Shown: positions 1 to 4,954 of the stretch, piece after piece
Layout: each line of letters starts with the position of its first letter
How positions within the stretch are numbered: the stretch's first letter is position 1
Source: Prochloraceae cyanobacterium
GTDB lineage: Bacteria; Cyanobacteriota; Cyanobacteriia; Cyanobacteriales; JASJDA01
Direction of reading: 5' to 3'
DNA length: 51,213 bases
Assembly: GCA_030065755.1 (NCBI GenBank)
Contig: JASJDA010000004.1
Span: 1-51,213 of the forward strand
The notes under the pieces: model-generated
Told to the model about the DNA's origin: nothing
Seen by the model: the letters and a program-made list of their open reading frames with translations, nothing else
Databases searched by the model: none
Program-made: the position numbers and the translations under genes

Positions 1-255
1 AGACACCTATGAAAAACCTAAACAAACCTGGTCATAACTAGGAATGTTTTTTGTCATAGGTTGCAGAGTCAGATTCTATTTTAAGAATCTCCCTTAATTG
101 AGTTATGACACCTTTGGATGAACGCTAGTCCAAAGCACTGTCGTTAGAGATTAAGTAACGAGTAAAAAGGTTTATAGCTCTAGTGTCTCTAGCCTAACAA
201 GCTTAATTAAGTTTCTCGAAGCACACATTATTCTGAAAAGAAGTTAATCACAACC
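1..255 (+). ncRNA. candidate omega RNA scaffold upstream of iscB
   Basis: This non-coding stretch directly precedes an IscB gene, which is where IscB omega RNAs are encoded. It is dense in exact inverted repeats: 5-12 with 54-61 (8 bp), 31-39 with 101-109 (9 bp), 71-77 with 84-90 (hairpin, 6-nt loop), 112-118 with 129-135 (hairpin, 10-nt loop) and 141-146 with 156-161. The first two pairings interlock (5-12/54-61 crosses 31-39/101-109), so they would form a pseudoknot or alternate with each other. Such folds are known for IscB omega RNAs. The guide would be at the 5' end, so it may lie at or before the window edge. The pairings are seen; the RNA identity is inferred from position and structure. 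Confidence 0.6.
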
Positions 256-1515
256 ATGATTAAACCAAACCATGTACTTGTTCTCGATACCAACAAAACA
301 CCTTTAATACCATGTAAGCCATCAATGGCAACCATGCTATTAAAATCTGGCAAAGCTGCTGTTTATCGTAGATTCCCCTTTGTAATCATCCTAAAAAAGG
401 AATGTACCCCAAGTAACCTTGCCCAAATTGAGTTAAAAATTGACCCAGGTTCAATGACAACTGGTTTAGCCTTAGTTCAAGACGATAAAGTTATTTGGGT
501 AGCTGAACTCAATCATCGTGGCTCATTGATCAAGAAAAAACTTGATTCTCGCCGTGCTAGCCGTCGCTTGAGGCGAAGCAGACTCAGGTATAGAAAGCCA
601 AGATTTCTTAATCGTACCCGACCCAAAGGATGGTTAGCCCCAAGCTTAGAACATCAAGTTTTAACTACTTTAACCTGGGTAAAACGCCTAATCAAGTTTG
701 CGCCTGTTGATTCCATATCAATGGAGCTAGTAAGATTTGACACTCAAAAACTAGAAGCACCTGAAATATCAGGAATAGAGTATCAGCAAGGAGAGTTACT
801 CGGTTATGAGATTAGAGAGTATCTATTGGAGAAGTGGGGAAGAAAATGTACTTATTGCTCCAAAGAAAATATTCCTTTGCAGGTGGAGCATATTGTACCT
901 AAAGCTAAAAACGGCTCAAACAGAATTAGTAATTTGTGTCTAGCTTGTGCAAAATGCAATCAGAAGAAAGGAACTCAATCGATAGAACAATTTTTAGCCA
1001 AAAAGCCTAGCTTGCTTAAAGCTATATTGGCTCAAGCAAAAAAACCATTACGTGATGCGGCTGTGGTTAATGCTACCCGTTGGCAGCTATTTAATTCTCT
1101 CAAGGGAACTCGATTGTCTGTAACTACTGGCACTGGAGGAGAAACTAAGTTTAATCGACAAAGATTCAGGCTAGAAAAGACTCATTTCTATGATGCTGCT
1201 TGTGTAGGACAAGTTGATAGCTTAGAAGTTCTATCTAATCAGCCTTTAATTATTACCTGTAAAGGACATGGAGGAAGACAAAAAGCAGCATTAAATAAAT
1301 ATGGCTATCCCATAAGATACAACCCTCTCAAGCCAATTAAAGGTTGGCAATCGGGAGATTTAGCTCTAGACGATCGAGGTAATTTAGGACGGGTCAATCC
1401 TCGCTCTAGATCCAATAGCTTTAACTTTACTGTTTTTGGGCAAAAAGCTAAAAGTATTCACCTCAAAAGACTAAAGCGAGTTCATCAAAAGGATGGATAT
1501 ACCTACGCACAATAA
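256..1515 (+). CDS. iscB: IscB-like RNA-guided HNH/RuvC endonuclease
   Basis: This 419-residue protein has the full IscB layout. A short N-terminal PLMP-like region is followed by RuvC-I around Asp63 (IDPGSMTTG), an arginine-rich bridge helix (about 94-120, with RRASRRLRRSR), RuvC-II with Glu157 (SMELVRFD) and an HNH domain (about 198-240: CTYC, EHIVP with His212, then a CLACAKCN zinc knuckle). RuvC-III follows with His310 and Asp313 (HFYDAA). All expected catalytic residues are present, so the nuclease looks intact. IscB proteins are ancestors of Cas9 and cut DNA guided by an omega RNA encoded upstream; the structured 5' region fits this. No TnpA transposase lies next to it, so any mobility would depend on a helper elsewhere. 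Family assignment is secure; activity and target are not known. Confidence 0.93.
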   Translation: MIKPNHVLVLDTNKTPLIPCKPSMATMLLKSGKAAVYRRFPFVIILKKECTPSNLAQIELKIDPGSMTTGLALVQDDKVIWVAELNHRGSLIKKKLDSRRASRRLRRSRLRYRKPRFLNRTRPKGWLAPSLEHQVLTTLTWVKRLIKFAPVDSISMELVRFDTQKLEAPEISGIEYQQGELLGYEIREYLLEKWGRKCTYCSKENIPLQVEHIVPKAKNGSNRISNLCLACAKCNQKKGTQSIEQFLAKKPSLLKAILAQAKKPLRDAAVVNATRWQLFNSLKGTRLSVTTGTGGETKFNRQRFRLEKTHFYDAACVGQVDSLEVLSNQPLIITCKGHGGRQKAALNKYGYPIRYNPLKPIKGWQSGDLALDDRGNLGRVNPRSRSNSFNFTVFGQKAKSIHLKRLKRVHQKDGYTYAQ

Positions 1516-1569
1516 CCAAGTATGTCAAGGAATGTATAAGAAAAATGACACTAGAATACAACAGGAACG

Positions 1570-2301
1570 ATGGGGGAGGGAGAGATGGGGAGAAACCAAC
1601 AGCAAACAGCAAACAGAATTATTGTTGCTTTAGACGTATCAACTAAAAAAGAGGCGATCGCCTTAATAGACAAATTACCCCAGGTCAGCTTTTGGAAAGT
1701 TGGTCTGGAATTATTTGTCAGTTGTGGAACTGAAATTTTACAAATTCTTCAAGAAAGGCAAAAGCGTATTTTCTTGGATCTAAAGTTTCACGATATTCCT
1801 AACACCGTAGCAGGTGCTTGTAATTCAGCTTTAGCTTATGGGGTTGAGTTCCTAACAATTCACGCAACTGCTGGTAAAAAAGCACTACAAGCAGCAACTG
1901 AGGCGGTAGCAAAAGGAAATTCTCGCCCTAAATTACTGGCTATTACCCTGCTTACTAGTATAAACTCGCGAGAGTTAGCCTTCGACCTAAAAATTCCCTT
2001 AGAATTACCAGAATATGTTTTGCAAATGGGGGTTTTAGCCCGAGACTCCGGTATAGATGGGGCTGTTTGCTCTCCTCAAGAAGTAGTTCAACTGCGACAA
2101 GTTTGTGGAGATGACTTCGTGCTAGTTTGTCCTGGAGTACGACCGACTTGGGCGCAAACAGGAGATCAAAAGCGAGTAATGACGCCAGCAAAAGCAATTC
2201 AGGCTGGTGCCGATTATTTAGTTATCGGTCGTCCTATTACTGCTGCAGAGGATCCAGCTTTAGCTTGGGACAAAATTTGTCAAGAGTTGGCCGATATTTA
2301 A
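1570..2301 (+). CDS. pyrF: orotidine 5'-phosphate decarboxylase
   Basis: PyrF converts OMP to UMP in the last step of de novo pyrimidine synthesis in the cytoplasm. The sequence shows the class-I TIM-barrel signature [10 protein letters not shown] with the Asp70-Lys72-Asp75 catalytic set, the N-terminal IIVALDV strand and the phosphate-binding GRPI motif near the C-terminus. Two starts are possible: ATG 1570 and ATG 1585. The second has a purine-rich GGAGGGAG stretch just before it and may be the real one. The first residues ([14 protein letters not shown]) look like translated spacer and repeat DNA rather than conserved protein. The gene ends tail-to-tail with nblA, with only 2 bp between the two stop codons. 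Confidence 0.95.
1598..1618 (+). repeat. heptamer tandem array in the 5' end of pyrF
   Basis: Three consecutive 7-bp units (AACAGCA, AACAGCA, AACAGAA) lie inside the pyrF reading frame just before the conserved first strand and encode the QQQTAN-like tail. Closely related ACAGCCA heptamers occur at 43814-43862 in front of another gene. The array is seen directly; membership in the cyanobacterial STRR class of repeats is inferred. Confidence 0.7.
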
Positions 2302-2303
2302 AT

Positions 2304-2495
2304 TTATTGTCCGCTCTTCTTACGTGAATGGCCAAATCCTAACTCGTTTTTGATAAAGTCCTTATACATATTTTCCTTGAGCATTATTTGTTTGTAAAGT
2401 TCGATCGCCAATTCTTGTGCTTGTTCCTTGCTTAATTCCTGCACTCGTTCGGCAAATACTCTTTTCTGAAATTCTTGCTCCAAAGACAGGTTCAT
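2304..2495 (-). CDS. nblA: NblA phycobilisome degradation protein
   Basis: This 63-residue protein matches the NblA/Ycf18 pattern: LEQEF near the N-terminus, a central SKEQAQELAIELYKQ helix and then MYKDFIKNELGF. NblA is a small helical-hairpin adaptor that binds phycobiliproteins and brings them to Clp protease during nutrient starvation, so the host should make phycobilisomes. The length is typical (about 59-65 residues). It is transcribed leftwards from the 241-bp divergent spacer shared with the alcohol dehydrogenase at 2737. NblA genes are usually induced by nitrogen or sulfur starvation, but I found no clean NtcA box (GTA-N8-TAC) upstream. A sulfate-assimilation gene, cysH, is nearby but not in the same transcript. 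Confidence 0.92.
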   Translation of the reverse strand: MNLSLEQEFQKRVFAERVQELSKEQAQELAIELYKQIMLKENMYKDFIKNELGFGHSRKKSGQ

Positions 2496-3801: not shown

Positions 3802-4080
3802 TCAAAGTGTTGCCCAGCCACCATCAACCAAGATTTCTTCACCCAACATGTAGGAAGAATCTTCGCTAGCCAGAAACAACACGACCTTGGCAATTTCCTC
3901 TGGTTTACCGAAACGTCCAACAGGAAATCTTTGTAAGACTTTCTCTGCCATTTCTGGTGGCAGCTCCATTTTAGACCAAATGGGAGTTTCGATCGGTCCT
4001 GGGGCAACTGCATTTACCCCGATCTGACGATCGAGTAGTTCCATGCTCCAGGAGCGTGCTAGCGATCGCACTGCTGCTTT
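3802..4080 (-). pseudogene. C-terminal remnant of a short-chain dehydrogenase
   Basis: Read leftwards, this frame encodes the last 92 residues of a classical SDR. It starts at what looks like the Lys of the YxxxK active site (KAAVRSLARSW), continues through NAVAPGPIETPIW and GRFGKPEEIA and ends with the usual LVDGGW. The Rossmann half with the cofactor-binding glycines, the catalytic Ser and the Tyr are missing, so it cannot be a working enzyme. At its 5' edge it runs into a different remnant (an HTH domain) in another frame, the two sharing about 22 bp (4059-4080). This points to a deletion that joined two unrelated genes at a short similar sequence. Confidence 0.8.
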
Positions 4081-4195
4081 TTGTCTTGACGAGTAATTCT
4101 TCCTTCTTGCTCTAATTTTTTCAAGGCTTTTGAAAGAGTCTGTGGAGTAAAACCTAGTTCTGTTGCGATTTCTTTGAGAGGTCGATCGAAATTCC
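4059..4195 (-). pseudogene. helix-turn-helix remnant (Crp-like C-terminus)
   Basis: Immediately after the cysH stop, another leftward frame encodes a winged-helix-like segment: PLKEIATELGFTPQTLSKAL, then KLEQEGRITR. This resembles the C-terminal DNA-binding end of Crp/Fnr-type regulators. No effector domain precedes it, since the sequence upstream is cysH. The frame stops at 4059 within the SDR remnant. It is most likely the leftover 3' end of a regulator, possibly of sulfur or redox genes, brought next to cysH by deletion. MarR- or Lrp-like origin is an alternative. Confidence 0.6.
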
Positions 4196-4954
4196 CTAGG
4201 CTGCAAGTGAAGCTGTCGCTGTCTGGGGTAAGTGTAAACCACATTCCTGTTTGAGACCTCGAAAGCGGGTCGATCGCTCGTTAGTATCTGTTGCTGTCAG
4301 TGGTCGGCTAGAATGCCAATCTCCAACCGTTACATATCCGAGATCGAAAAATGGGTGGTAAGGTAAATCGTAAGCAGTCAAATATTGGTAAATATCCCTA
4401 GAAGTCAAGTCCAAGATCGGTAAAATTTTGTATTGTTCCCCTTGACGATTGACCAGTTGTAAAGTCTTGCGATAATCAGTTTGGTCGCGGCGCAGTCCTG
4501 CTAGCCAAGCGGTTGCGTTTAATTCTTTGAGCGCCCTCTGCATCGGTTCGACTTTACGGATGCGATCGTAGCGGTTTAATGCCTCTACATTATCTTGCTC
4601 CCACAGCCGCCCAAAAAGCGCCTCCATGCGGGCTGAACTGATGGGAGATTGATATACTTTGAGATTTAGCTTCAGTCGATCGGTCAGTTGTTCGGCAAAT
4701 CGATAGGTCTCTGCTGGCAAATAACCCGTATCTACCCAAATGACTGGGATATTGGGGACGATCTGGGTAACGAGATGCAGCATGAGTGCAGACTGAATGC
4801 CGAAACTGGTACTCATGACTAGACCATCTCCAAAAGTCCCTGCTGCCCATTCGACGATTTGGGATGCTGACTTATTAGAAAGTTGTTTCTCGATCGATTC
4901 GAGGTCAATAGATTGGTCTTTGCTTACACTTGCTGGGTATTTTAGCTGTATCAT
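4196..4954 (-). CDS. cysH: phosphoadenylyl-sulfate reductase
   Basis: CysH reduces PAPS to sulfite with thioredoxin in assimilatory sulfate reduction. The 252-residue protein shows the PP-loop-like nucleotide site (STSFGIQSA, about 48-56), the [17 protein letters not shown] region, [10 protein letters not shown] and the C-terminal ECGLH motif with catalytic Cys238. The extra CC and CxxC cysteines that hold the 4Fe-4S cluster of APS reductases are absent, so it should use PAPS. The start ATG at 4954 is preceded by a GAAATGA-type site. The 200-bp leader carries two copies of a TTGACCGATT element resembling the operator near the upstream tetR gene. The 3' end abuts decayed sequence. Confidence 0.92.

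What the first reader, a model, noticed from the sequence alone, without database searches (positions are those of the whole stretch)
1..1515. Complete IscB locus with interlocking pairings in the presumed omega RNA
The nuclease keeps Asp63, Glu157, His212 and Asp313, and the 255 bp upstream hold five exact inverted repeats. Two of them cross: 5-12 pairs with 54-61 while 31-39 pairs with 101-109. This is a pseudoknot or a switch between folds. Known omega RNAs are highly structured with pseudoknots, so this may be an intact, possibly divergent RNA-guided system on the bacterial chromosome without a transposase beside it.
Basis: partly seen in the sequence, partly recalled or inferred. Interest (0 to 1): 0.65.

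Follow-up and report, generated by a model that had tools for sequence, protein, structure and literature searches.

The report
Ordinary IscB–omega RNA mobile element

Summary
The locus is real and is a known kind. Window 21-231 matches Rfam HEARO (the IscB omega RNA family, 86.9 bits, gathering 83). ORF 256-1515 is IscB (NCBIfam NF040563, 448 bits) with Asp63, Glu157, His212 and Asp313 in place.

The proposed pseudoknot is not supported. 5-12/54-61 is the base of the normal guide adaptor hairpin. 31-39/101-109 conflicts with two covarying stems, is imperfect in every close relative, has predicted pairing probability 0.00, and a 9-bp match occurs in 13% of shuffles. The true pseudoknot is short: 124-126 with 220-222, 98% paired over about 60 homologs with 36 compensatory cells, corresponding to the nexus pseudoknot of OgeuIscB.

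The window starts at a contig edge because the element (about 7-1554) has two copies. The missing left flank is contig C285 (tyrS 3' end), so the element lies between tyrS and pyrF and its guide should be ...TTCAATAATTGCCACTACCAACAC. The second copy splits a coiled-coil gene. No transposase lies inside; Y1 transposases occur elsewhere in the genome.

It belongs to a divergent cyanobacterial subfamily with a single-hairpin guide adaptor: a new member of a known kind. Cleavage, expression and mobilisation in trans are inferred.

The parts
7..1554 (+). Mobile element: omega RNA scaffold plus iscB, ends CTATGAAAAA... and ...ATGACACTAG
   Evidence: Contigs C259 and C285 share window from 1/3 on and diverge to the left; C369 shares 1419-1554 and diverges after it. 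Empty site of the other copy inferred from the coiled-coil reading frame
3..6 (+). ACAC, host tetranucleotide (NCAC) left of the element; 5-6 also pair with 60-61
   Evidence: ACAC or TCAC at the same place in both copies, in C187 and in the Xenococcaceae relatives
21..231 (+). Rfam HEARO (RF02033) match; the true scaffold begins at about 5
   Evidence: 86.9 bits, E 2.8e-16, above gathering 83
5..61 (+). Guide adaptor hairpin: 5-12/54-61, 14-16/50-52, 20-24/45-49, 27-31/38-42
   Evidence: Covariation and pairing on A1 and in wider set; folds alone at -19 kcal/mol
66..68 (+). Nexus stem 5' strand, pairs with 215-217
   Evidence: 93-98% paired with several pair types
71..90 (+). Stem-loop 71-77/84-90
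93..103 (+). Central stem 5' strand, pairs with 201-211
112..135 (+). Nexus-pseudoknot hairpin 112-118/129-135
124..126 (+). GCU, 5' strand of the conserved nexus pseudoknot with 220-222
   Evidence: 98.3% paired, 36 cells changed on both sides, 0/500 shuffles; highest mutual information in the scan
143..193 (+). Stem-loop 143-150/186-193
201..211 (+). Central stem 3' strand
215..217 (+). Nexus stem 3' strand
220..222 (+). AGC, 3' strand of the nexus pseudoknot
256..1515 (+). iscB, 419 aa
   Evidence: NF040563 448 bits; RRXRR and HNH; catalytic residues aligned to solved IscBs
31..39 (+).
1570..2301 (+). Right neighbour pyrF (orotidine 5'-phosphate decarboxylase), outside the element
   Evidence: PF00215 200 bits; tyrS-pyrF adjacency in 17 of 19 related loci

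Best explanation
The locus is one of two copies of a 1.55-kb IscB-type mobile element (OMEGA/HEARO system, related to IS200/IS605), inserted between tyrS and pyrF. The omega RNA is transcribed from the left flank into the element. Its 5' guide is the last 16 or so bases of host DNA at the left junction (...TTCAATAATTGCCACTACCAACAC). [quoted passage not shown] IscB binds it and cuts matching empty sites (alleles that lost or lack the element), which favours retention and copying by repair. The element has no transposase and is presumably moved by a Y1 TnpA acting in trans. Shown here: protein family and catalytic residues, RNA family and covarying structure including the pseudoknot, two-copy status, flanks. 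Inferred: transcription, cleavage, TAM, retention role, mobilisation in trans.
For: IscB model 448 bits; catalytic residues on solved IscBs. HEARO over gathering, and the same RNA upstream of most related iscB genes. Canonical stems with 12 doubly changed pairs in six close sequences. Pseudoknot 124-126/220-222 with 36 doubly changed cells, 0/500 shuffles, at the place of the functionally required OgeuIscB nexus pseudoknot (PMC9640706). Two copies with different flanks; tyrS-pyrF neighbours in 17 of 19 relatives; second copy splits a coiled-coil frame. Sixteen TnpA hits elsewhere in the genome.
Against: No expression or cleavage data. The interior of the second copy was not assembled separately. 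Guide length and TAM are not determined, and the right flanks of the two copies share no evident TAM. No resident TnpA has matching ends. The 20-nt guide has no other exact target in the genome, so the retention role rests on the family, not on data here.
Confidence: 0.9

Rival explanations
1. One reading: 31-39 pairs with 101-109, crossing 5-12/54-61, either beside the canonical fold or as an alternative state.
For: 9 exact base pairs in the window; 85% of cells still pair in the close relatives, mostly because the columns do not vary.
Against: No doubly changed pair and the middle pair present only in the window; 62.3% paired against 60.9% in shuffles in the wide set; uses bases of two supported stems; pairing probability 0.00, and 18 kcal/mol worse when forced as a nested helix; 9-bp repeats occur in 13% of shuffles.
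Confidence: 0.03
2. A decayed or inactive remnant: the parts look intact but the locus is no longer expressed or active.
For: A deletion derivative of the element exists at C187:4717-4941, so copies do decay; no expression data.
Against: Full-length ORF, all four catalytic residues, intact covarying RNA, and two copies identical where they can be compared, which points to recent movement.
Confidence: 0.07

Closest known systems
IscB-omega RNA (OMEGA; HEARO RF02033 / NF040563), e.g. OgeuIscB
   Same: RuvC-HNH protein with catalytic residues aligned, omega RNA directly upstream, guide adaptor hairpin, nexus, central stem and nexus pseudoknot (PMC9640706)
   Different: Protein shorter (419 against about 496 aa); pseudoknot of 3 rather than 4 pairs
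Xenococcaceae MAG copies L026, L027, L028, L104, L065
   Same: 78-84% identical IscB, near-identical omega RNA, ACAC or TCAC on the left; one fully supported clade with the window (100/100; L065 is cut off and not in the tree)
The other HEARO/IscB copies of the same genome (C94, C135, C167, C64, C182, C51, C369)
   Same: Same RNA family (120-157 bits) and, for six of them, a full-length IscB of 56-60% identity
   Different: Guide adaptor built as two small hairpins, different ends, right ends running into (A/G)TGA; separate clade

Membership tests
IscB RNA-guided endonuclease | Curated IscB model over cut-off | tested here: met
   NF040563 448 bits, cut-off 175
IscB RNA-guided endonuclease | RuvC and HNH catalytic residues kept | tested here: met
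   D63, E157, H212, D313 aligned to solved IscBs
IscB RNA-guided endonuclease | RNA-guided DNA cleavage | not testable with these tools
   Needs a biochemical assay
HEARO / IscB omega RNA (RF02033) | Covariance-model score at or above gathering | tested here: met
   86.9 bits against 83; close relatives 63-87 bits
HEARO / IscB omega RNA (RF02033) | Conserved stems supported by covariation | tested here: met
   12 doubly changed pairs, 0/500 shuffles
HEARO / IscB omega RNA (RF02033) | Nexus pseudoknot between hairpin loop and post-nexus linker | tested here: met
   124-126/220-222, 98.3% paired
HEARO / IscB omega RNA (RF02033) | Transcribed guide taken from the left flank | tested here: inconclusive
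   Flank identified (C285); no expression data
IS200/IS605 element (complete, autonomous) | Own Y1 transposase TnpA | tested here: not met
   No TnpA inside 7-1554; 16 TnpA hits elsewhere. Not filed as an autonomous IS605 element
IS200/IS605 element (complete, autonomous) | Defined ends next to a short target motif, no target duplication | tested here: inconclusive
   Left NCAC in all copies seen, right end CTAG; one empty site inferred from a reading frame

The most novel reading that the evidence does not exclude
A Xenococcaceae-centred IscB subfamily whose insertion motif (NCAC) lies on the guide side, so that the target motif itself supplies the first two pairs of the guide adaptor hairpin. 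This would couple the transposase's site choice to RNA folding, unlike the other IscB elements of this genome, whose (A/G)TGA motif lies on the far side.
Probability: 0.2. Interest if true: 0.4.

Novelty: new member of a known kind. Interest (0 to 1): 0.18.

Why it matters
It shows how an IscB locus cut by a contig edge can be completed: the natural left flanks of both copies were recovered, and the pseudoknot was placed by covariation rather than by repeat length. The recovered guides and the single-hairpin adaptor make it a usable test case for small cyanobacterial IscBs. It does not change what is known about the family.

Tried and rejected
Matching the element ends to the resident TnpA loci to find the trans-acting transposase: only chance-level matches. 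A second exact target for the 20-nt guide in the genome: none; three sites with 3 mismatches, close to the reversed-pattern control. Extending the right end to an AACAG motif at +6 to +10 past CTAG was considered because several copies share it; rejected because the other copy lacks it and its reading frame closes at CTAG. No structure prediction was run: solved relatives already settle the protein family.

Full report
What is there. The window is the whole of contig C163 of an 8.46-Mb, 455-contig genome. ORF 256-1515 is IscB: NCBIfam NF040563 at 448 bits against a cut-off of 175, with RRXRR and HNH domains in Pfam. Alignment with solved IscBs places D63, E157, H212 and D313 on catalytic positions; H212 matches OgeuIscB H247 (PMC9640706). 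Upstream, 21-231 matches Rfam HEARO, the IscB omega RNA, at 86.9 bits with gathering 83.

The pairings. Of exact inverted repeats, two are 8 nt or longer and six are 7 nt or longer; shuffles give 0.7 and 2.7 on average, and 13% of shuffles hold a 9-bp repeat. Six close sequences (window and five Xenococcaceae MAG loci) were aligned (A1). The canonical omega RNA stems, 59 pairs including 5-12/54-61, are 96.6% paired with 12 pairs changed on both sides, 0 of 500 shuffles as high. It also needs bases that belong to the apical stem of the guide adaptor hairpin (27-31/38-42) and to the central stem (93-103/201-211). That program does not model pseudoknots, so the comparative evidence carries more weight.

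The real pseudoknot. A covariance model made from A1 gave 71 hits over 88 related sources, most of them directly upstream of iscB. In 60 long matches the pair 126-220 has the highest mutual information of all pairs scanned between the hairpin loop and the linker after the nexus. The helix 124-126/220-222 is 98.3% paired with 36 cells changed on both sides, 0 of 500 shuffles as high. It was not in the model, so the alignment was not fitted to it. Related sequences can exceed such shuffles without structure, but the slid controls also fall well short. Its place corresponds to the nexus pseudoknot of OgeuIscB, whose disruption abolished editing (PMC9640706).

A mobile element in two copies. Contigs C259 and C285 end in window 1-135 and 3-136; C369 begins, in reverse, with 1419-1554 and then differs. 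Hence at least two copies share both ends, and the assembly broke at the repeat. C285 carries the 3' end of tyrS; tyrS lies next to pyrF in 17 of 19 related pyrF loci. So this copy sits between tyrS and pyrF, and its guide should be the tyrS 3' flank ...TTCAATAATTGCCACTACCAACAC. The other copy splits a coiled-coil gene: joining C259 ...AAAAGACAC to C369 TTCGATCG... restores a frame that aligns without gaps to an internal repeat of the same protein (the join was read by eye from the translations). That puts the element at about 7-1554 with a host ACAC on its left; relatives have TCAC or ACAC there. C187:4717-4941 is a deletion derivative with only the two ends. The interior of the second copy was not assembled separately, so identity over its whole length is inferred.

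Transposase and relatives. No transposase is inside the element; 16 Y1 TnpA hits lie elsewhere, and none of their surroundings clearly shares its ends. The IscB tree puts the window in a fully supported clade with the Xenococcaceae copies, apart from the six other full-length IscBs of this genome. The HEARO scores of this clade are 63-87 bits, against 120-157 for the other copies over gathering in the genome. Low alignment confidence in the guide adaptor suggests that the single-hairpin adaptor is the cause. More distant IscBs occur on plasmids and in viral records.

'No covariance to known omega RNAs' did not happen: the RNA is HEARO. 'Homologs of the upstream region without an adjacent iscB' do exist (C187; six HEARO copies without a nuclease gene beside them), but these are what deletion derivatives and solitary omega RNAs of such elements look like, and they do not count against the identification.

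Verdict. A new member of a known kind. The protein, RNA family, structure, copy number and flanks are shown; expression, cleavage, TAM and mobilisation are inferred from the family.

Noticed in passing
Genome contigs C94:10813, C223:57817, C296:9796, C66:2276, C449:22376, C279:35695 (loci L134, L137, L138, L140, L144, L145): HEARO RNAs over the gathering score with no RRXRR (IscB/IsrB) gene beside them: 14 HEARO over gathering but only 7 full-length IscB in the genome. They may be solitary omega RNAs served in trans, or remnants.
   Followed up: partly
L133 (C187) 1418-1645: Internally deleted copy: guide adaptor hairpin joined to the last ~150 bp of the element. Its adaptor stem differs from the window's by compensatory changes (CUACUA/UAGUAG against CUAUGA/UCAUAG).
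   Followed up: partly
window 1555-1565, L133, L028, L104, L026: AACAG (AGCAG in L026) lies 6-10 nt past the CTAG/CTAT end in five copies but not at the second copy (C369). Unexplained: flank preference, TAM-like motif or a longer element end.
   Followed up: partly
L028 about 2403-2450 and 4237-4482: A 48-nt hairpin-like insert within the omega RNA before the central stem 3' strand, and a second HEARO RNA about 440 bp downstream of iscB.
   Followed up: no
window 1572-1616: Low-complexity repeat (gggagggagagatggggag...cagcaaacagcaaacag) between the element and pyrF, with about 17 similar places in the genome.
   Followed up: no
window 3802-4244 (-): Two overlapping gene remnants beside cysH: the C-terminal third of a short-chain dehydrogenase (PF13561) and a winged-helix fragment (MarR/Crp-like).
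   Followed up: partly
window 2304-2495 (-): nblA, a small phycobilisome-degradation protein gene (PF04485), confirming a cyanobacterial host.
   Followed up: no
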